A stretch of 64,000 nucleotides of DNA from Micromonospora sp. WMMD1128 (lineage in GTDB: Bacteria > Actinomycetota > Actinomycetes > Mycobacteriales > Micromonosporaceae). Below the pieces are notes generated by a model, which had not been told where the DNA came from, did not search any database, and was given only the letters and a program-made list of their open reading frames with translations. The DNA is taken from positions 5,544,001 through 5,608,000 of the forward strand of contig NZ_CP114902.1 of NCBI RefSeq assembly GCF_027497235.1. The letters are read 5' to 3'. A program made the translations under genes and the position numbers. Below are positions 9,299 to 20,623 of the stretch, one piece after another (the stretch's first letter is position 1; every line of letters begins with the position of its first letter).

Positions 9299-9988
9299 AT
9301 GCGGGTGGATCAGGGGGTACGGGTCGAGGACCGGCTGCGGGAGTTGTCCGGGCGTCTGCACGGGCCGGCCCGGCTCAAGGCCGATCTGCTGACCGAGGCG
9401 CGGCACGCGCTCGAGGACGCCGCCGAGGCGTACCGGGAGGGTGGTCTGCCGCGGGCGGAGGCCGAGCGGCGGGCGGTGGCCGAGTTCGGCAGCGTCGCCC
9501 AGCTCGCGCCGGGCTTCCAGGCCGAGCTGGCCGCCGGCGCGCTGCGCGGGCTGGCGCTGCGCACGCTCGCGGTGGCGGTGGTGCTGATGGCCGCCGGTGA
9601 CCTGACCTGGCACGGGTCGAGCTGGAGCGCCGGCCCGCGACCGCCGGCGGCCTACCTGCTGCTCTCCACGTCGATGCACGGTATCTGGGGGGTGGTCGCC
9701 GGGCTGGCGCTGGCCGGGCTGGTGCTCGGCGCGCTCGCCGCCCGGCGGGATTCGCCCTGGCTCGTCCGGTCGGCCCGGGCGGTCGGCTTCGGGTTGACAG
9801 GTGGGCTGCTGGTCGGCGCGCTCGCCGGTGGTGCCCTGTTCGGCTGGTCGGTCCGCTTGTGGGACGCCGCGTTGACCTGGCCCCCGATGATCATCGGGGC
9901 GGTGGTGGCGTCGGCGGCCTGGTTCTCGCTGGCCCGGTCGGCTCGCTGGTGGCTGCTCAGCGCACGCCGGCCACGGGTGGCCGGTTAG
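9299..9988 (+). CDS. Membrane protein with N-terminal permease-prefix-like domain
   Basis: 229 residues. The first ~75 form a charged helical domain (RLRELSGRLHGPARLKADLL, then EAERRAVAEFGSVAQLAPGFQ) resembling the permease prefix domain often encoded next to PadR regulators. Four hydrophobic segments follow (about residues 85-100, 118-142, 155-180 and 195-212). The function is unknown. It follows cydC by 55 bases, which suggests co-transcription, and it faces padR, the usual genetic partner of this domain. Confidence 0.75.
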   Translation: MRVDQGVRVEDRLRELSGRLHGPARLKADLLTEARHALEDAAEAYREGGLPRAEAERRAVAEFGSVAQLAPGFQAELAAGALRGLALRTLAVAVVLMAAGDLTWHGSSWSAGPRPPAAYLLLSTSMHGIWGVVAGLALAGLVLGALAARRDSPWLVRSARAVGFGLTGGLLVGALAGGALFGWSVRLWDAALTWPPMIIGAVVASAAWFSLARSARWWLLSARRPRVAG

Positions 9989-9998
9989 CTCGCGGCCC

Positions 9999-10064
9999 GC
10001 AGGCCCGAGGGGCCGGGTATGCGGGACCGAGGGGCCAGGTACGCAGGCCCGAGGGCCGGGCCCG
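9999..10064. repeat. Three imperfect 22-bp tandem repeats between convergent genes
   Basis: Three units of the form GC(A/G)GG(C/A)CCGAGGGGCC(G/A)GGTA lie between the convergent membrane-protein and padR genes. Each unit contains complementary GGCCC/GGGCC pieces that could fold into hairpins. Terminator function for both genes is plausible. Confidence 0.6.
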
Positions 10065-10077
10065 CGGGTCGGGTGGG

Positions 10078-10419
10078 TCAGGCCGGCGCGACAGGTGGTT
10101 CGTCCGCGCCGAGGAAGCGGCCGACGGTGGCGCTGAACTCCCGCCAGCCGGCCCGTTCCCCGGCGAGTGCCCGGCGGCCCGCGTCGGTGAGCTGGTAGGT
10201 GCGGCGTTCCCGGCCGTTGACCGTGCTCCATGTGCTTGCGACCAGGCCGGCCCGCTCCAGCCGGCGCAGCGCCGGATAGATGGTGCCGGTCGGCAGATCG
10301 AGCGTGCCGCCACTGCGCGCCCGCAGCGCCTCGATGATCGCGTAGCCGTGCTGCGCGCCCTGCTCGAGCACCGCCAGCAGCAGCGCGTCGAGATGTCCGT
10401 GCAGCGCCTGCGCCTTCAT
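10078..10419 (-). CDS. PadR family transcriptional regulator
   Basis: 113-residue PadR-type winged-helix repressor (MKAQALHGHLDALLLAVLEQ, then GYAIIEAL, GTIYPALRRLERAGLV, and YQLTDAGRRAL). The C-terminal helix is short, as in subfamily 2. It lies convergent to the permease-prefix membrane protein and directly behind a GTAG-N5-CTAC dyad that also occurs at the cyd promoter. It is therefore probably autoregulated, and may govern cydABDC and the membrane protein. Confidence 0.92.
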   Translation of the reverse strand: MKAQALHGHLDALLLAVLEQGAQHGYAIIEALRARSGGTLDLPTGTIYPALRRLERAGLVASTWSTVNGRERRTYQLTDAGRRALAGERAGWREFSATVGRFLGADEPPVAPA

Positions 10420-10421
10420 GT

Positions 10422-10434
10422 GTAGAAAGCCTAC
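10422..10434. promoter_or_regulatory. PadR autoregulatory operator candidate
   Basis: The dyad GTAGAAAGCCTAC lies two bases before the padR start codon on the minus strand. Twelve of its 13 bases match the first dyad before cydA. Confidence 0.55.
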
Positions 10435-10565
10435 TTGTCCGGGCTTCGGGACGCCACCGGGGTGGGGTTCCCGTGCGCGACCGGTCGACCACTAGGGTAT
10501 GTGCGCAGAGTCACTCGGCGGCGCGACGCCGCCGGGTGGGCACCCGAACGCACACGGAGGTCAGC

Positions 10566-11507
10566 GTGGCCCGCCAGTCGCCCCAACGGCCCGACGCCGA
10601 CGAGCCCGAGCTCGACGACACCGCGTCGACCGCAGCAGACGAGGTCGAGGCCGACCGCCCGGCCGCGGATCGTGCCCTCTGGGACGAGGTGCGGATCGAC
10701 CCGGTGGAGATCGCCCTCCCCGCCGGCACCGGCTTCACGCTGCGGGCCTACCGGTCGGCGCGCGAGCTGACCCCGACCGACGTCGCCGAGCGCGACCAGG
10801 ACGACCCCTTCCTGGCCCGCCGCCAGGTCGTCGAGACCGAGGACGACGAGGAGGTGGTGATCCTCGACGAGGAGTTCGCCGCCCTCTCCGCCGAGGAGGA
10901 CGACGAGGACGGGAAGAGCACCCGCGGAAAGACCGCCGACGCCGACGCCGACGCCGACCCGGCCGAGGAAGCCGAGGAAGCCGACGACGAGAAGGACGAG
11001 GACGAGGACGCCGCGGGCGACGAGGAGGTGCCGGTCTTCCTCACCCACAAGGGCCGGCTGCTGCTGTTCAAGACCCCCGAGTCACTTGTGACTTTCATCC
11101 GTTCCGGTGCGCCCACCGACCTGTCCCAACTGGACAGCTGGAATGAACTGTCCGAACGGCTGGAACCGGCCGACGTCGCCCCGCTGGACGACGACACCTA
11201 CGAGCTCGATCTGGTCGTGGAGAACCTGCGCGGCGGGCACGACGCATGGGATCCCGCGCTCCTGATCGAAGCCGGCGAGATCGCCCGTGACCTGGCGTAC
11301 GCCCTGCGGCTACCGGCCGTACTCGACATGCTCTCCGCCGGCTCCAGCCTGGACGATCTGGACGAGGCGCTGCGCGCTTCCGTCAACGGCGGAGTCGGTG
11401 GTTTCCTGGGCCGGCGGCGGCTGAAGAAAATCGGGGCACAAACCGCAAGTTTGGGTTGGCGCACCATTGTCGGCAAGATCTCTGCCGTCGTGGACTGGCG
11501 CGACTGA
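10566..11507 (+). CDS. Acidic protein of unknown function
   Basis: 313 residues, start GTG after ACGGAGG. The N-terminal half is very acidic and low-complexity, with runs of Asp/Glu and an (AD)n stretch around residues 125-165, so it is probably disordered. The C-terminal half (from VPVFLTHKGRLLLF onward) is a folded mixed domain with hydrophobic helices (ARDLAYALRLPAVLDMLSAG) and a basic end (GRRRLKKIG). I recognise no catalytic motif. It lies 64 bases before the transposase-like gene in the same direction, suggesting an operon, and diverges from padR. Confidence 0.7.
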   Translation: MARQSPQRPDADEPELDDTASTAADEVEADRPAADRALWDEVRIDPVEIALPAGTGFTLRAYRSARELTPTDVAERDQDDPFLARRQVVETEDDEEVVILDEEFAALSAEEDDEDGKSTRGKTADADADADPAEEAEEADDEKDEDEDAAGDEEVPVFLTHKGRLLLFKTPESLVTFIRSGAPTDLSQLDSWNELSERLEPADVAPLDDDTYELDLVVENLRGGHDAWDPALLIEAGEIARDLAYALRLPAVLDMLSAGSSLDDLDEALRASVNGGVGGFLGRRRLKKIGAQTASLGWRTIVGKISAVVDWRD

Positions 11508-11571
11508 CCCGGAGCGGGGAGCATCAGTCTCTGGCAGAACAAGACCTGTGTCCCGGGAGGAGGACGACGCT

Positions 11572-14010
11572 GTGGCGCTCGTGCGCGTGTACTGCGGTCT
11601 GGCCTCGGCAGATCCGGCCGACCGAACGGCTTCGGCCGAAACGACGCTGACGTCCGCTGTGGTCGACGACGCAGGCCGTCTGCTGCATGTCTGTGAGATC
11701 GGGGACGAGCCCGCCGGCTACGCCCGGTTGGTCGCGCTGCTGGTGGAGCGCTCCGGTGGGCCGAGCGGCGCGGCCATCGCCGCGGACAGCGACGACCACA
11801 CCGTCACCTCACTGCTCAGCGCCGCCGGCCGACCGCTGGCGATCGCGGACGACGACTCGGTCGACGACTTCGCCGAGCGTTTCGCCGACGACGACTCGCT
11901 TGAGGAGATGCAGTCCTCGCCCGCCGAGCGTCGGGCGGTCGGGCTGGCCCGTGCGTTGCAGGCCGGAGCGTTGTCCGCGGTGACCCTCCCGGCGCCCCGC
12001 GACCTCGCCGGCTACAAGCAGGTCCTGTCCGCGCACGCGGCACTCGCCAGCGGGCGGCATTCGGCGGCGGTGACGCTGCGCGAGGTGCTCCGCGAGCTCT
12101 ACCCGGCCGCGCTGCGCGCGTACCTCGACCCCGCCGAGCCGGTCGCCCTGGCCGTGCTCGACGCGCTGCCCGAGCCGAGCATGCTGACCGGCGCCATCGG
12201 CCGCGGCCGTGACCTCGGCGCGACCATCGACGCGGTGGCCGCGCAGCTCGCCGCCGAGGGCCTGGCCGACGCCGACACCGTGACCGAGGCGGTGACCGCG
12301 CTGCGGGTCGCCGTCTCCGAGACGCCCCGACGGGCCACCGTCAACCGGGTGCTCACCGCCGCCGTCGCCGAGACCGTTCGGCAGGCCGTCGCCTCCGTCC
12401 GGGCCTGCGACGCCGGCTGCGACGCGCTCGTGGGTGCGCTTGCCGAACGCGCCACCCCGGCGCCGGCCGCCGGCCGCCGGGCCGCCGCCCGCCGTGGTGA
12501 GCAGGTCGACGAGCTGACCCCCACGGCACCCGCCGGGCTGCGCCCGGTGCGCGCGCCCGAGCCCGCGCCGGCCGCCGAGCCGACCGGCCGGCGCAGCCGC
12601 CCCGAGCCGGACCTCGACGCCACCGATCCGGGCCGCCGCCGCCCCCAACCACACCCCGACGCCACCGATCCGGGCGGCCGGCGCAGCCGCCCCGAGCCGG
12701 TCCCCGGTGGCCGGCGCAGCCGCCCCGAGCCGGTCTCCGGCCCGGCCGCCTCGGCCTCCCCCCGTCCGCTCGGCCCGCCGCCGGTCGCGCCCGCACCGGT
12801 CGCACCACCGCCGGTCGCCCCGAACCCGGTCACCCCCGTCGCCCCGGCGGCGGCGCTGGGCCGGCCGACCGCCGCATCCCCGAGCCGCCCCGAGCCGACC
12901 GGCGTGCCGCTGCCGTCGCGGGTGGACGGGCCGACCAACCGTCCGGTCTCCGCGCCGCCCCCGCCGCCGCCCGGGATCACGCCGATCCCGCCGTCCCAGC
13001 GCGGCGTCGTGCCGCCGGCCGAGGCCGGCGAGCCGTTCCGCCCGACCCTCACCACCGCGGCGATCAACAAGGCCCGGGCCGAGCGGCAGCGCACGGTCAT
13101 CCCGCCGCGCCCGAAGACCACGCCGGAGCCGCCGACGGGCGGGTTCAGCGCCACCGACCTGAGCATCCCGGTGCCGAGTTCGCGTCCCCCGGCGCCGGAG
13201 GCCCCGCCGGGATCCCGCGCCAACTGGCCCCTCGTCAACAACGGCGAGGACCAGGCCGACCGGGAGCGGGAGGCGCCCGCCTACCCCTACGGGCGGGGCG
13301 TGGACGCGCCGAGCGACCCGGGGCGGGTCACCCCGCCGTGGCTCGCCGACGACCTGCCGCAGGAGCCGCCGATGCTGCGGCTCGTCGAACCGCCGCCGCT
13401 TGCCGACCGGGCACTGCGCAGCGAGCTGGACCGGCCGACCGAGCCGGGCCTGGACACCCCGCCACTGCGGCTGGTCGACCGCGGCGACGCCGGCCGGACT
13501 GTCGCCCGCGCCGAGCTCCCCCCGCCGCTGGAGCGGCGTCCCGCGCCGAAGGAGCACCGGCCCCCGCCGGTTTCCGACGAGGGCGACGGCGACCTGCTGA
13601 TTTTCGCGCAGGCCAGGTCCGCCTGGTTCGTCGGGCACGGCGACGAGGCCGACCTGGAGTGGACGTCCACCGCGGACACCGGCTGGCAGGCCGCCGAGCA
13701 GGCAGCCCGCCCGGCGGTCGGCTCGGAGACCAAGGCCGGCCTGCCCAAGCGGGTGCCGCAGGCCAACCTGGTGCCGGGCTCGCCACTGCGCGAGGAGCGC
13801 CCTCTACGGATCGTCCGCAACGCGGCCAGTCTCGCCGAGAACACCACCGGCTACTTCCGGGGTTGGCGGCGCGGGCAGGAGATCGGCGGTTTCGCCGTCG
13901 GCGGTCGGCCGGGCCGGGAGGCGGCCGGCGGTTGGGACTTCAGCCGGGACACCGGCGACCGCGACGACGAGCGGGAATTCGAATACCGCTCTGCGGGCTA
14001 CCGGTCCTGA
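11572..14010 (+). CDS. IS110-transposase-like domain fused to Pro-rich region and Cvn-kinase-type tail
   Basis: 812 residues, GTG start behind GGGAGGAGG. Residues ~1-290 follow the layout of IS110-family (DEDD, RuvC-fold) transposases: a first strand, VVDDAGRLLHV and EPAGYARLVALL, then an IAADSDD strand, a GRPLAI strand, a long helical part with LREVLRELYPAAL, and a terminal helical segment. The acidic catalytic residues expected in GIDWA, VExxxG and KSDPGDA are not present, so nuclease activity is unlikely. Residues ~290-680 are Pro/Arg-rich and probably disordered. Residues ~683-765 (SAWF, then ADTGW, then GLPKRVPQANLVPGS, then GYFRGWRRG) match the tail of the conservon kinase 3 kb downstream. 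No terminal repeats flank it. The IS110 reading is my own pattern match and needs structure-based confirmation; a nucleic-acid-binding scaffold is the best guess. Confidence 0.65.
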   Translation: MALVRVYCGLASADPADRTASAETTLTSAVVDDAGRLLHVCEIGDEPAGYARLVALLVERSGGPSGAAIAADSDDHTVTSLLSAAGRPLAIADDDSVDDFAERFADDDSLEEMQSSPAERRAVGLARALQAGALSAVTLPAPRDLAGYKQVLSAHAALASGRHSAAVTLREVLRELYPAALRAYLDPAEPVALAVLDALPEPSMLTGAIGRGRDLGATIDAVAAQLAAEGLADADTVTEAVTALRVAVSETPRRATVNRVLTAAVAETVRQAVASVRACDAGCDALVGALAERATPAPAAGRRAAARRGEQVDELTPTAPAGLRPVRAPEPAPAAEPTGRRSRPEPDLDATDPGRRRPQPHPDATDPGGRRSRPEPVPGGRRSRPEPVSGPAASASPRPLGPPPVAPAPVAPPPVAPNPVTPVAPAAALGRPTAASPSRPEPTGVPLPSRVDGPTNRPVSAPPPPPPGITPIPPSQRGVVPPAEAGEPFRPTLTTAAINKARAERQRTVIPPRPKTTPEPPTGGFSATDLSIPVPSSRPPAPEAPPGSRANWPLVNNGEDQADREREAPAYPYGRGVDAPSDPGRVTPPWLADDLPQEPPMLRLVEPPPLADRALRSELDRPTEPGLDTPPLRLVDRGDAGRTVARAELPPPLERRPAPKEHRPPPVSDEGDGDLLIFAQARSAWFVGHGDEADLEWTSTADTGWQAAEQAARPAVGSETKAGLPKRVPQANLVPGSPLREERPLRIVRNAASLAENTTGYFRGWRRGQEIGGFAVGGRPGREAAGGWDFSRDTGDRDDEREFEYRSAGYRS

Positions 14011-14135
14011 CCCGAGCCGCCCCGCAGGGTGTTCCTGCCCACACCCGGACAATTTGACGCCGCCGCTTGTCGGCCGGGAGCATACCCGGCGGACCAGCGG
14101 CGGCGCGTGTTCGCCGTGGTGGGAAGGCGACTCCA

Positions 14136-15356
14136 ATGGCGACACCGGCATTCGACTCCACCGTGCTCACCCGCCGGGGCGTCCTCACGGCCGCAGCCGG
14201 CAGCCTGCTGCTCGCCGGATGCGGCCCGCAGGGTCAGCGGCCGGACGAGGGCGCGGCCAGCGGCGCACCCGGCGACCAGGACATGGTCGTCGGCGCCAGC
14301 CTTGAGCTGAGCGGTCGCGGCGCGGCGCTCGGTCTGGTCCAGCGGCGGGCCCTGGAGATCACGGCGGAGTCACTGAACCGCTCCGGGATCCCGGTCGGGA
14401 ACCTGCTCCGGTCGATCCGGCTGGAGATCCGCGACAACGGCAGCGACCCGCAAGTGGCCGCCCGACACGCCGCCGACCTGACCCGGACCGGGTCACACGC
14501 CCTGGTCGGTGGCGTCCTCGGGGAGACCGCCACCGCCCTCGCGTCGGCCGCCCAGCAGCTCAAGACGCCGTTCCTGGCGCTCGGCCACGCCGACCACATC
14601 GTGCTGCCCCTGGCGGACCGCACGTTCAGCTTCAAGCTCACCCCCGACGGCGCCGACGTGGCCCGTCGGATGGTGGACCTGCTCGAATCACAGCGGATCC
14701 GGCGGGTGGTCCTGCTGGCCGGGGACGGCCCGCACGGCGACTCGGGCGTACGGGCGGTACGGGAGGCCCTCGGCGCCAGCACCATGGACCTGGTGCGCAC
14801 GCTACGCCTCCCGGAAACCGGGCGGAGCTTCCGTGCCGCCGCCGGGCGGGCGACCGCCGGGGACCCGGACGGCGTCATCGTCTGGAGCACCGCGCCCGAC
14901 TCCGGTGCGGCGGCCCGGGAACTGCGGCGGGCCGGGCACCGCGGCCCGCTCTTCTTCGACCCCGGCGCGGTCGTGGACGACACACTCAGCCGCGCCAACG
15001 CGAAGGCGGTCGAGGGGGCGTACGCCGTGCACCCGGCCTGCCTGGGCGGTTCCGCGCTGACCGCCACCAGCGGCGCGCAGGTGGCCCGGCGGGACTTCGA
15101 CTACCGCTACACCCAGCGCCACGGCACCTCGGTCGGCTTCGCCCCGTACGCCGCGGACGCCCTCCACCTCCTCGCCGCGTCGGCGCGCGGGGCGACGAGC
15201 CTCGACCGTGGCCGGTTACGGGCCTTCCTGCAGACGCAGATGGTCGAGGGCATCGCCGGCGGGTACGCGTTCACCGCCGGCCACCACGGGGGCATGGAGG
15301 CCGACTCGCTCGGCGTCTACCGGGTGTCCCAGGGCAGCTGGACCCGGTACGCCTGA
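14136..15356 (+). CDS. Tat-type lipoprotein, periplasmic-binding fold (LivJ-like)
   Basis: 406 residues. The N-terminus has a twin-arginine signal (LTRRGVLTAAAG) and lipobox LAGC, so the mature protein should be lipid-anchored outside the membrane at Cys29. The body is a type-1 periplasmic-binding protein of the branched-chain amino-acid class (VVGASLELSGRGAALG, IRDNGSDPQVAARHA, LVGGVLGETATALA). No permease or ATPase gene is nearby, so it is probably a sensor or scavenging protein. It lies between the transposase-like gene (125 bases upstream) and the convergent conservon, and may feed ligand information to it. ATG start after GGGAAGG. Confidence 0.85.
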   Translation: MATPAFDSTVLTRRGVLTAAAGSLLLAGCGPQGQRPDEGAASGAPGDQDMVVGASLELSGRGAALGLVQRRALEITAESLNRSGIPVGNLLRSIRLEIRDNGSDPQVAARHAADLTRTGSHALVGGVLGETATALASAAQQLKTPFLALGHADHIVLPLADRTFSFKLTPDGADVARRMVDLLESQRIRRVVLLAGDGPHGDSGVRAVREALGASTMDLVRTLRLPETGRSFRAAAGRATAGDPDGVIVWSTAPDSGAAARELRRAGHRGPLFFDPGAVVDDTLSRANAKAVEGAYAVHPACLGGSALTATSGAQVARRDFDYRYTQRHGTSVGFAPYAADALHLLAASARGATSLDRGRLRAFLQTQMVEGIAGGYAFTAGHHGGMEADSLGVYRVSQGSWTRYA

Positions 15357-15403
15357 CCGTCGTACCCGGGACGCTCCGCGGGTGAACGCGGTGACGAACA
15401 GCA

Positions 15404-15441
15404 GGAAGCGCCCGGTGGCCCCACGGCCATCGGGCGCTTCC
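15404..15441. terminator. Bidirectional terminator hairpin
   Basis: An 11-bp perfect stem (15404-15414 with 15431-15441) and 16-base loop lie between the convergent lipoprotein and cvnD genes. It can serve both directions. Confidence 0.7.
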
Positions 15442-15450
15442 GCGCGTCGG

Positions 15451-16065
15451 TCAGGCGGGTGCGACGGCCCGCGAGCGCCGCATGGTGAGCACGTACTCGA
15501 CAAGCGAGATCAGCACGTGCTTCGTCGACTCCCGGTTACGGGCGTCGCAGGGCACCACCGGCACGTCACGGGAGATCGCCAGCGCGTCCCGGACGTCCTG
15601 CGGGTCGTGGTACTGCATGCCGTCGAAGCAGTTGATGGCGATCAGGTAGGGCAGCCGCCGGTGCTCGAAGAAGTCGATGGCGGCGAAGCAGTCGGCGAGC
15701 CGGCGGGTGTCGACCATCACCACCGCGCCGATGGCTCCCCGGACCAACTCGTCCCACATGAACCAGAACCGCGTCTGACCCGGCGTACCGAAGAGGTACA
15801 GGATCAGGTCACGGTCGATCGAGATACGACCGAAGTCCATGGCCACCGTGGTCGTCGTCTTGCCCGGCACCTGCCGGGTGTCATCGACGCCCACACCCGC
15901 GGAGGTCATGATCGCCTCCGTGGTCAGCGGCGTGATCTCGGAGACCGAGCCGACCAGCGTCGTCTTGCCGACGCCGAACCCGCCGGCGATAACAATCTTC
16001 GCTGACGTCACGCGCCCGCTCGGCACCGGCGCCCGGTGCGACATGTCAGAGCCTGCGAAGTCCAC
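15451..16065 (-). CDS. cvnD: Conservon GTP-binding protein (CvnD)
   Basis: 204-residue small GTPase of the MglA/Ras-like conservon class, the output switch of Cvn systems, acting at the membrane face. The P-loop GGFGVGKTT is at about residues 28-36. The G3 region is LYLFGTPGQTRF, and NCFD replaces the usual NKxD. I chose the GTG at 16065 (MDFAGSDM) because CvnD proteins usually begin MDF; it overlaps cvnC by 20 bases. An ATG at 16044, just past the cvnC stop, is the alternative. Confidence 0.93.
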   Translation of the reverse strand: MDFAGSDMSHRAPVPSGRVTSAKIVIAGGFGVGKTTLVGSVSEITPLTTEAIMTSAGVGVDDTRQVPGKTTTTVAMDFGRISIDRDLILYLFGTPGQTRFWFMWDELVRGAIGAVVMVDTRRLADCFAAIDFFEHRRLPYLIAINCFDGMQYHDPQDVRDALAISRDVPVVPCDARNRESTKHVLISLVEYVLTMRRSRAVAPA

Positions 16066-16423
16066 TCAGCACCCTCTCCAGCAATTCAGTGCCCACCGCG
16101 TCGTCGGAGTCGTCCAGAATGGTCGGCTCGTGCACCGCGACCAGGCCATCCGTCGCCATGTCGGCGATGAGCACCCGGGCCACGCCGAGCGGAAGCTGCA
16201 TCCGCGCCGCGATTTCGGCGAGCGACTGCACACGTCCGTCACACAACGCGGCGATGTACTGGTGTTCGCGACCTTGACCCCCGTTGCCGGTGGCCACTGC
16301 TCGGCCGCGCACCGTCGTCTCGACGAGCGCCTCCAGGGCGATTTCGAGCCGGGGACGGGTACGACCACGGGTCACGGCGTACGGCCGCACCAACGCTCCG
16401 GTTGGTTCGTCACGATCCGCCAT
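16046..16423 (-). CDS. cvnC: Conservon DUF742 protein (CvnC)
   Basis: 125 residues with the DUF742 layout: ALVRPYAVTRGRTRP near the start, a winged-helix-like middle (SLAEIAARMQLPLGVARVLIADMATDGLVAVH) and the conserved end LLERVLSGLRRL. In conservons this protein links the roadblock protein to the GTPase; its DNA binding is unproven. Start ATG at 16423 with GGGAGGTGA just upstream. The ATG 30 bases earlier has no ribosome site. It overlaps cvnD. Confidence 0.92.
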   Translation of the reverse strand: MADRDEPTGALVRPYAVTRGRTRPRLEIALEALVETTVRGRAVATGNGGQGREHQYIAALCDGRVQSLAEIAARMQLPLGVARVLIADMATDGLVAVHEPTILDDSDDAVGTELLERVLSGLRRL

Positions 16424-16523
16424 GTGGCCGTTCACCTCCCTCGTACCCGGCACCGGCTCGCCCCGGTGACATCCGTCGCTGTCCTCGTTGTTTCCGCTCC
16501 TGACCCACCGGCCAGCGCGTCAT

Positions 16524-16928
16524 TCAGCCCATCATCCCCACAGCCGCGCGCGGCTGTGGCGTCAGGGCATCGCCCACCCGGTCGACGAGCAGGGCCATCT
16601 CATACCCGACCTGACCCACGTCGCAGCTCCGCGCCGCGAGCACCGCGAACGACGAGCCGTCGGAGATGGACATCAGGAACAGGAAGCCGTTGTCCATCTC
16701 GACGACTGTCTGCAGCACCGCCCCGCCTTCGAAGCACCGCGCCGCGCCCTGGGTCAGGCTGACCAGACCCGAGGAGATGGCCGCGAGCTGGTCGGCGCGG
16801 TCCCGCGGAAGGTCACGGGACGAGGCCAGAAGCAGGCCGTCGGCCGAGACCGCGACCGCGTGCGCCACCCCGGGCACCCGGTCGGCGAAGTTGGCGAGCA
16901 GCCATCCGAGATCCTGCGTAGTAGTCAT
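16524..16928 (-). CDS. cvnB: Conservon roadblock/LC7 protein (CvnB)
   Basis: 134-residue roadblock/LC7 domain protein ([29 protein letters not shown], then [16 protein letters not shown]), the GTPase-activating or adaptor partner of CvnD. Its ATG overlaps the cvnA stop (ATGA), so it is coupled to the kinase. A 100-base gap precedes cvnC. Confidence 0.94.
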
Positions 16929-19900
16929 CCTTGTTGCTCCTTCTGCCCGCTCCCGGCCACCGGGCCTGAGCCAGACTGCGAGGACTGCTGCCCGCCCGGA
17001 GTGCCCTCCGGGCCGGTCGTGTTGCTGTCGGTGGGGTGGTTGCGGCCCCGCTGGACACCTCGATGGTAGGCCGAGAGCAGACCCCGTACGGCCTCCGGCG
17101 TCCGCCGCTGCACGGTCGGCGCCGGCTTGTCGATGCTGCCCGGCACGAGCTGTGCCATCGGCGTTCGCTTCGGCAGGCCCTTCTGGGTGGTCTCCGCGAC
17201 CGGGACCTCGGTGGCCGCCGAGGCGGCCCGCCAGCCGTCGTCGGCCGCGGTCTGCCATGGCGAGGACTGCTGCGGTGCGGGCTGCTGCGGCGACGTCGGC
17301 TGCCGGGTGGGCAACCCTCCGGCGTACGCGGGACGGCCGTTGCCGTTCGCCGCCCGGTTGTCCCGCGGCGCTCCGCCGGCTGTCGGAGTCTGCGCCATCG
17401 GTGTGTTACCTGTCGTCGCGGATGTCTGCGGTACGGGCCGGCCGGCGGTGTCCACCTTGGCGAACTGCTGGGTGGGGGCGCCGTTCGCCGGCGCGGCCTG
17501 CGCCGGTGCCGTCGCCGGCGCCTCGTCGTTCGGCCCCGGTCGGCGGGTGCGGAACCAGGCGGACTCGAGCTCCCGGAAGATCGGCAGCTCCATCGTCTCG
17601 TCCGCGTACCGCTGGCGGTTGCCGGCCGGCTGCGGTGCGGCGGGTCGCGCCGCGGGGGCCGGCGTCGACGGCGCGGCGGCCGGTTGGGCGGCGGCGGTCG
17701 GCTGCGGAGCCGCCGCCTCCGGAGCCGCCGGCTGGGTCTCGGCGCGCGGGACCCGGGGCAGCTCGGTGGTCATGTCCAGGCTGGCGGACTGCCGCTCCGG
17801 CGTCGCCGGAGCCGGGGCCGGCTCGGCCGGGGCGACCGGCGGCCAGACCGGCGGGGCGCCCACGTGCGGCGCGGGAGCCGGGCGCGACGGCAGTTGGCCG
17901 GCCGGCGGCGCGGACACCGGGAAACCACCGGCGGGCTGGCCGGAGGTCGGCGCGGCCGACACCGGCCGGGTCGGAAGTGGGTTGCCCGAGACCGGCGCGG
18001 CCGAGACCGGGCGGCCCGAGTACGGGTCGTCCGCCCCCGGGCGGCCCGAGTACGGGTCACCCGAGACCGGGTGACCGGAGACCGGCGCGGCCGAGACCGG
18101 ACGGCCCGAGAACCCTGGGAACGGGGTGCCGGACACCGGCGGCAGCGGCGGCGCGGACACCGGCGGGACCGGCGGCGCGGACACCGGCGGCGGATTGTAC
18201 GGCCGGGCCTCGGGGCTGCTGGGCAGCTGCCGTGGGATGGTCGGCTGCTGGCCGCCGGTCGCCGGGTCGCCCTCGCCCGGGTGACGCCGCTGGGGCAGCG
18301 GGTCGATGGACTGGCCGTTCGCCGACCGCGGCGGGTAGCCGTCACCGCCGCTCGGGTTCGCCCCGGTCAGGTCGGACCACGCCGGCATGGCACGACCGGC
18401 ACCGGCGTTGGCCGGGGTGCCGGCGCCGTTGCGGTGGCCCGGGTCGAAGGACCGGCCGCCGAGCGTGACCTGGTTGCCGGAGGCGCCGGGGTGCGACGGC
18501 GGCGGGGTGTGCGGGCCGTTGCCGAGCGCGGCCAGTGCGCCGAAGGCAGGTGCCGGGCCGGCGCCGAAGGCCGGCGCCGGGCCGCCCTGCTGCGGGCCGG
18601 CGGCCGGGAGGGCCGGCCCAGGCATCCCGCGACCGGCCAGGGCGCGCGGCACCAGGACCGTGGTGGGCAGCGTGACGTCGGCGACGGTGCCCCGGTCGGC
18701 GGCCGGCCGCAGCTCGACCTTGACGGCGTGCCGGGCCGCCAGCCGGGCGACCACGACGAGGCCCATCATCCGGGAGACCGCCACGTCCACCTGCGGCGGC
18801 GTGGCCAGGCGCTCGTTCAGGTCGTGCAGCTGGTCGGCGCTGATGCCGATGCCGCGGTCCTCGACGTAGAGCGAGGCACGGTCGCCGACCCGGCGGGCCT
18901 CGACCATGACGTGCGAGTCCGGCGGGGAGAAGGCGGTGGCGTTGTCGAACAGCTCGGCGACCAGGTGCACCAGGTCGTTGACCGCGTGCGCGGCGACCTC
19001 GATGTCCCGGTCGATCACGCCGAACTCGATCCGGGTGTAGTGCTCGACCTCGGACTGGGCGGCTCGGAGCACGTCGATCAGGGCGGCCGGCTCACGCTGC
19101 ACGCGGGTGGAGTCCGCGCCGGCGAGGACCAGCAGGTTCTCGTCGTTGCGGCGCATCCGGGTGGCCAGGTGGTCGAGCTGGAACAGCTCGGCCAGGCGGT
19201 CCGGGTCCTCCTCGCCGCGCTCCAGCCGGTCGAGGTGGCCGATCAGCCGGTCGACCAGGATCTGCGAGCGGCGGGCCAGGTTGACGAACATGGTCGCGAC
19301 GGAGGCGCGCAGGGCGGCCTGCTCGGCCGCGGTCCGGACCGCCTCCAGGTGGACCGCGTTGAACGCCTCGGTCACCTGGCCGAACTCGTCCTTGCTGCGT
19401 ACCGGCAGCGGCTCGGCGATCTGGTTTGCCAGCTGCACCGGGGAGAGCTGGCCGGTCACCTGCGGGTCACGCAGCCGGGCCACCGCCTGCGGCAGGCCGT
19501 ACTGGGCCACCGAGAGGGCGCCCTGACGCAGGTCGCGCAGCGAGCGGGCCATCGAGCGGGCGACCAGGTAGGCGAAGAGGATGGCCAGCAGCAGCATGGT
19601 GAGCAGCAGGCCGGTCTCGAGGAACACCTGGCGCTGCGTGTCCGAGCGGAGCTCGTCGGCCCGCTGGACCACGTTGCTGTCGAGCCGTGACTCGACCGCG
19701 CGGAGCAGCTTGGCGTTGCCGACCATGGCCTGGTCCCACTGGTCCGGCCCGAACGGCGCGTTCGCCATCGAGCCGCTGTTGTTCGCCGACATGAAGCCGG
19801 TGAGGTTGTCCGCCTTGCGCAGGTCGGGACCCTCGACGGTCTGGTCGAAGAACTCGGAGTCGGCGGGGGTGGCGACGGACCGGAAGGTCGCGAGCGCCTG

Positions 19901-20623
19901 GGCCTGGGCGGTGCCGCTGGCGATGAACTGCTCGCGCAGCGCCGGACTGTACTGGTTCTGGGTGAGCGCCTGGTGCACGACCACCCGGCGCTGGGCCAGG
20001 TATTCCTTCTGCCGGGCCACCGCGGCGGCGGCGCGCATCCGGTCGCTGAGGTCGTTGTCGCCGGCGAGCTGGGTGGCCGAGTCGCGGATCGACAGCAGGT
20101 CGTTGATCAGGCGCTCGTACGCCTTCTCCGCCTCGTCGATCTTGAGCTTGCCGTTCAGCACCTGGCTACGGGTGGCCGGCAGGTCCTTGAGCTGGTCGTC
20201 GATCTCGTTCAGCCGGACCTCGAAGTTGCGTGGCAGGTCACTGATCTCGCCACGCTGCCGCGAGTAGGGGCCCTTCGCCTGGTCCACCCGCTGGTTGGCC
20301 CGGTTGTACGCCTCCTGGTACTGCGCCCGGGTCTGGGTCTCCCGCGCACCGAGGAAGAGCACCGAGCCGACCCGCTCGTCCTGCATCGTGTCGGCCAGGT
20401 CGCCCGAGTATCCGATCAGGCTGGCCAGGTCACCGGCACGGTTGGCGCTGTTGAGCGTCTCCAGGTGGTCGACCAGACCGCTTGTGCCCACCACGACCGT
20501 GGCGATGGTCGGCACGATCATGATCAGACCGAGCTTGGACCAGATCGGCATGTCGCGCAGCCGGCTCGCCGGCCGGCTCAGCCGCGACAGGAAAGAGCCC
20601 GCCGTCGTTGGCCGTTTGCTCAC
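16925..20623 (-). CDS. cvnA: Conservon sensor histidine kinase with NIT sensor (CvnA)
   Basis: 1232-residue membrane sensor kinase. The first transmembrane helix is at about 31-50, the extracellular nitrate/nitrite-sensing (NIT)-type helical domain about 55-330, the second helix about 335-355, then a HAMP-like linker and kinase core. The H-box-like segment is [20 protein letters not shown] with His485. The ATPase N-box is [12 protein letters not shown] (557-568) and the G-box EDRGIGIS. A Pro/Ser-rich region with many [13 protein letters not shown] repeats runs from about 660 to 1110, ending with the [15 protein letters not shown] tail motif. The length is at the long end for the class. It heads the cvnABCD cluster. 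Confidence 0.93.

What the first reader, a model, noticed from the sequence alone, without database searches (positions are those of the whole stretch)
11572..14010. Domesticated IS110-like transposase, catalytically dead, in a signalling locus
The N-terminal ~290 residues follow the strand/helix order and landmarks of IS110 DEDD transposases (VVDDAGRLLHV, EPAGYARLVALL, LREVLRELYPAAL, then the terminal helical block). The acids expected at the catalytic positions are replaced (GLASAD for GIDWA, IAADSDD for IETD, SSPAERRA for KSDPGDA). The gene has its own ribosome site, no flanking repeats, and a Pro-rich C-terminal half found in no transposase I know. This suggests a transposase RuvC-like fold recruited for another job, such as nucleic-acid binding or scaffolding.
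Basis: partly seen in the sequence, partly recalled or inferred. Interest (0 to 1): 0.85.

Follow-up and report, generated by a model that had tools for sequence, protein, structure and literature searches.

The report
Dead transposase fused to signalling tail
A gene that databases call a transposase is a dead jumping-gene enzyme domain that one bacterial family has kept for a long time, joined to the tail of a neighbouring signalling kinase, so it is probably a signalling part and not a mobile element.

Summary

In diverged genera the gene is followed at once by a roadblock gene of its own. In 36 of 41 loci it faces a convergent cvnABCD. The upstream gene is a SatS-type chaperone homologue that in other families of the order stands without this gene or a conservon nearby.

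Best reading: a dimeric pseudo-transposase scaffold presenting CvnA-type tails to roadblock proteins. Origin well supported; function inferred.

The parts
11572..14010 (+). The gene (called T here), 812 aa; alternative start GTG 11548
11578..11991 (+). Degenerate RuvC/RNase H-like domain derived from IS110 (D,E,D,D positions read A,D,A,R)
11992..12462 (+). Helical domain equivalent to the IS110 coiled coil; fold like Nop5 and Nop56/58
12478..13584 (+). Pro/Arg-rich linker (25% Pro over residues 301-655), probably disordered (inferred from composition)
13585..13878 (+). CvnA-type C-terminal tail: LLIFAQARSAWF (13594-13629), GLPKRVPQANLVPG (13738-13779), YFRGWRRGQ (13852-13878)
10473..11507 (+). 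Upstream gene U, single-domain SatS-type chaperone homologue (relatives are named DNA primase in records); true start not settled
14136..15356 (+). Periplasmic binding protein (PF13458); found in 11 of 41 loci
15451..16065 (-). cvnD, small GTPase (PF03029)
16046..16453 (-). cvnC, DUF742 (PF05331)
16524..16928 (-). cvnB, roadblock/LC7 (PF03259)
16925..20623 (-). cvnA, sensor histidine kinase (NIT, HAMP, HATPase_c) with the same tail

Best explanation
T is a host gene made by joining the RuvC-like and coiled-coil part of an IS110 transposase to the C-terminal tail of a conservon sensor kinase (CvnA). It cannot transpose by itself. Most likely it works as a soluble dimeric scaffold: the coiled coil dimerises it, the long Pro-rich linker acts as a tether, and the two CvnA-type tails dock roadblock proteins (its own co-translated partner in diverged genera, the neighbour's CvnB in Micromonospora), thereby steering or buffering the CvnA-CvnB-CvnD GTPase pathway. 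Shown by computation: the kinship of both ends, loss of catalytic residues, purifying selection, synteny, and coupling of T with a roadblock gene in diverged genera. Inferred: dimerisation, tail-roadblock binding and the effect on signalling. My confidence is about 0.93 for the origin and about 0.4 for the mechanism.
For: N-terminal half from IS110: PF01548 at E <= 1e-3 in 6 of 38 orthologues (16 of 38 at E <= 1), hhalign 99.5%, best PDB matches ISCro4/IS621, Tnp domain absent from the alignment with four true IS110s and no Pfam match to it in the full protein, 18 T rows apart from 13 IS110s with support 100/100. Dead: no acid at the D11 position in 268 sequences, 7 of them gapped. Constraint. 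Tail from CvnA: a profile of T tails alone matches 34 of 36 ORFs that have the CvnA kinase core, at E 4e-23 to 7e-15, and none of 418 shuffled or reversed controls; the two misses are pieces of one split gene whose tail lies on a third piece. Outside the family no listed match covers both ends (capped). Signalling link: roadblock gene directly downstream in 16 of 41 loci, in 8 of them with a possible start overlapping the T stop by 4 nt; convergent cvnABCD in 36 of 41. Scaffold rather than nucleic-acid binder: acidic shift, Tnp domain lost.
Against: No binding or expression data. The second roadblock gene is not seen beside T in 25 of 41 loci, the window included, and is not close to CvnB in the tree. 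Five loci have no conservon within the stretch fetched, though all five genomes hold DUF742 genes elsewhere. The window's CvnA has its own NIT sensor, so it has no obvious need of an accessory input. What the CvnA tail does is unknown to me. U is as constant a neighbour as the conservon, so T could serve U's pathway instead. A strict tail motif is missing in 5 of 227 database relatives.
Confidence: 0.6

Rival explanations
1. T is the nucleic-acid-binding output of the conservon: the dead RuvC plus coiled coil still binds RNA or DNA, as Nop5 and IS110 do, and the tail couples this to the GTPase.
Against: The Tnp domain is missing; mean net charge of the helical part is -2.7 in 41 T against +6.9 in 10 full-length IS110s, and of the whole N-part -12.9 against +1.1; helical matches at this Z may be only a common arrangement (tool note).
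Confidence: 0.22
2. T belongs to U: a SatS-type chaperone and T act together in protein export or folding, and the conservon is only a neighbour.
Against: In the 10 fetched of 11 strong U matches from other families of the order, no T-like, tail, roadblock, DUF742 or GTPase gene is found in 12-18 kb around U; tail and roadblock coupling point to the conservon.
Confidence: 0.13
3. T is still a working IS110 recombinase or part of a mobile element.
For: Database name 'transposase'.
Against: Catalytic D11 lost, Tnp/serine domain absent, one place in its own genome, 64 nt between U and T in the window, no bracketing repeats.
Confidence: 0.01
4. The IS110 resemblance is chance or convergence on a common fold.
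Against: Direct searches, Pfam on diverged orthologues, profile-profile and fold evidence agree on IS110.
Confidence: 0.02

Closest known systems
IS110-family transposase (IS621, ISCro4)
   Same: RuvC-like fold, coiled-coil domain, sequence homology over about 210-250 residues
   Different: No D11/D102/D105 equivalents in the window protein, no Tnp/serine domain, only 64 nt upstream of it, not mobile as far as tested; long Pro-rich linker and CvnA tail instead
Conservon sensor kinase CvnA (actinobacterial G protein systems)
   Same: C-terminal tail with the SAWF and GLPKRxPxAxLVPG motifs; in diverged genera followed by a roadblock gene
   Different: No NIT, HAMP or HATPase part; an IS110-derived domain in its place
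Conservon accessory proteins CvnE/CvnF
   Same: Extra protein encoded at a conservon
   Different: CvnF is a GAF protein and CvnE of cytochrome P450 type, and they go with CvnA proteins lacking a sensor (PMC13343842); T is neither, and the window's CvnA has a NIT sensor
Nop5/Nop56/Nop58 of box C/D RNPs
   Same: Inactive RuvC-like domain (PMC12045711) followed by a helical domain of similar fold
   Different: T lacks a domain after the helical part other than linker and tail; no sequence link was tested

Membership tests
IS110-family transposase | RuvC/RNase H-like domain of IS110 type | tested here: met
IS110-family transposase | DEDD catalytic acids (IS621 D11, E60, D102, D105) | tested here: not met
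   D11 position: A 220, T 35, V 4, S 2, gap 7 of 268; E60 position D in 249, E in 3; D102 position D in 16; D105 position D in 21
IS110-family transposase | Tnp domain with catalytic serine | tested here: not met
   homology ends before it, Pro-rich linker follows; no Pfam match to it
IS110-family transposase | Non-coding region for bridge RNA at the element's end | tested here: inconclusive
   U stop to first conserved T codon 40-132 nt in 35 of 40 loci, 160-310 nt in 5; no Rfam match in 9500-17500, but whether Rfam holds a bridge-RNA model was not checked
IS110-family transposase | Mobility, several copies | tested here: not met
   one place in own genome; U upstream in 40 of 41 loci. Some genomes have more than one match (up to 7); those extra matches were not read, except L071, a true IS110
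CvnA sensor kinase | Histidine-kinase core | tested here: not met
   no such Pfam or NCBIfam match for T
CvnA sensor kinase | CvnA C-terminal tail | tested here: met
CvnA sensor kinase | Roadblock gene directly downstream | tested here: inconclusive
   yes in 16 of 41 loci, no in 25 including the window
SatS chaperone (gene U) | SatS C-domain fold | tested here: met
SatS chaperone (gene U) | Chaperone activity in export | not testable with these tools
   none

The most novel reading that the evidence does not exclude
A new class of G-protein-signalling component: a transposase-derived pseudo-enzyme that stands where the kinase half of a CvnA-like protein would be, keeps its roadblock-docking tail, and makes a second, kinase-free input (or a decoy) to the actinobacterial GTPase switch. 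It would be, as far as my searches go, the first IS110 recombinase turned into a signalling scaffold.
Probability: 0.4. Interest if true: 0.78.

Novelty: new variant of a known kind. Interest (0 to 1): 0.64.

Why it matters
Many genomes carry this family-wide gene under the name 'transposase', so it is easily filtered out as mobile DNA. It is a case of exaptation of a recombinase from an RNA-guided family with a clear record: outgroup loci with the upstream gene but without it, true IS110 relatives, and diverged genera with a partner gene. It separates the CvnA tail from the kinase, which makes the role of that tail, and how roadblock proteins are recruited in conservons, directly testable.

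Tried and rejected
Pfam and NCBIfam on the window protein alone found nothing significant; only diverged orthologues hit PF01548. phmmer of the window protein against PDB sequences gave only chance-level matches; the profile gave ISCro4 at E 0.29, not significant, with acetyl xylan esterase rows at similar values. I expected the partner roadblock gene to be a copy of the neighbouring cvnB; the tree puts it in its own clade (99/83) away from CvnB, so a simple local cvnA-cvnB duplication is not supported; one long-branch paralogue (L134) is of unsure place. The first roadblock tree lacked paralogues on the minus strand through my script error; one search corrects it. Charge and tree used one badly cut IS110 row; one search mended that; one search drops three truncated or shifted IS110 rows (L033, L038, L041) from the charge count, leaving 10 of 13. 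The tree still holds those three rows. In one search the printed 'scores' are E-values, so the domain ranges printed there are unreliable; searches use bit scores. In one search two of my four motif patterns were too strict to be useful. One search counts U in 39 loci because it misses one overlapping case; one search gives 40. Bracketing repeats and known RNA families were looked for and not found. Literature: searches found no paper; others listed none whose title or shown abstract start describes an IS110-derived signalling protein or this gene, but 49 and 81 show only 12 of 81 and 10 of 309 papers, and the library holds only open-licence PMC papers.

Full report
What was checked. The ORF at 11572-14010 (+) is open over 812 codons. 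GTG 11572 follows a ribosome-site-like gggaggagg; several database homologues start eight codons earlier, at the equivalent of 11548. The protein has 861 homologues at E <= 1e-3, of which 120 are listed; NCBI names many of those 'transposase'. A search with its first 293 residues matched 197 of 200 sampled genomes of its family, its own included; G038, G113 and G163 had none. I looked closely at 40 fetched loci plus the window, chosen by me for spread, about half of them among the weaker matches; the other matches, and second matches in some genomes, were not read one by one.

It is dead. In 268 aligned sequences (41 loci plus the 227 database proteins listed; these overlap in part and are not independent) the D11 position is A 220, T 35, V 4, S 2, gap 7, never an acid. 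The E60 position is D in 249 and E in 3; the D102 position is D in 16 and the D105 position D in 21. In IS621 mutation of any of the four abolishes recombination (passages). Yet the domain is under strong purifying selection: NG86 dN/dS against seven relatives is 0.07-0.18 (RuvC), 0.13-0.35 (coiled coil), 0.22-0.63 (linker), 0.06-0.23 (tail). Eighteen T rows separate from 13 IS110 rows with support 100/100. The helical part has lost positive charge (mean -2.7 in 41 T against +6.9 in 10 full-length IS110s; whole N-part -12.9 against +1.1), which speaks against simple retention of nucleic-acid binding.

The C-terminal end is CvnA's. A profile made only from T tails matches 34 of the 36 ORFs with the CvnA kinase core, plus two tail-only ORFs that are pieces of CvnA genes cut by a stretch end or split (L081, L100), and no other of 4,835 ORFs apart from the 41 T; E-values for CvnA run from 4.2e-23 to 6.7e-15, and none of 418 shuffled or reversed controls match. 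The two misses are the other pieces of the split L100 gene. The shared block carries L.IF....SAWF and GLP[KR]R.P.A.LVPG. In this genome the CvnA tail as query matched, besides T, five ORFs at E below 1, CvnA itself included, the weakest at 0.017. In a class-wide scan with the full-length T model (296 genomes, 112 with a match; only three candidates per genome were scored), the listed matches outside the family lie either in the IS110 part (model positions up to about 290) or in the linker-tail part (from about 370 on), and none covers both; the list was cut. The fusion therefore looks specific to this family, which by the contig lengths above includes Stackebrandtia and relatives of Glycomyces.

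How it probably works. CvnA and T share only the tail, and both sit with roadblock genes. The plainest inference is that the tail docks roadblock proteins. T would then be a kinase-free, dimeric carrier of that tail, able to compete with CvnA for CvnB or to bring a separate roadblock to the GTPase; U may keep its long chain in order. Dimerisation, docking and effect are inferences. Published accessory proteins CvnE/CvnF are of other kinds and go with CvnA proteins lacking a sensor domain (PMC13343842; abstract, passages, sections 6 and 15), whereas the window's CvnA has one; T is therefore not simply a further member of that set.

Verdict. The finding is real and better than stated as to origin; function is open. 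It is a domesticated transposase (known kind) in a new setting with a new architecture.

Noticed in passing
window 10473-11507: Gene whose relatives are named DNA primase in records is a single-domain SatS-type chaperone homologue by fold and sequence.
   Followed up: yes
L072-L086, L088: A distinct roadblock/LC7 clade linked to T in diverged genera, not seen beside T in the window's clade.
   Followed up: partly
G000:C1:5700013-5700477 (L202): The only PF01548 match in the window's genome lies on a short ORF of 163 aa, apparently a truncated IS110.
   Followed up: no
window 14136-15356: Periplasmic binding protein gene between T and cvnD in 11 of 41 loci, never together with the second roadblock gene; a possible ligand partner of CvnA.
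   Followed up: no
L100 (11879-15914): CvnA is split over several ORFs in this locus, a possible frameshift or sequencing error.
   Followed up: no
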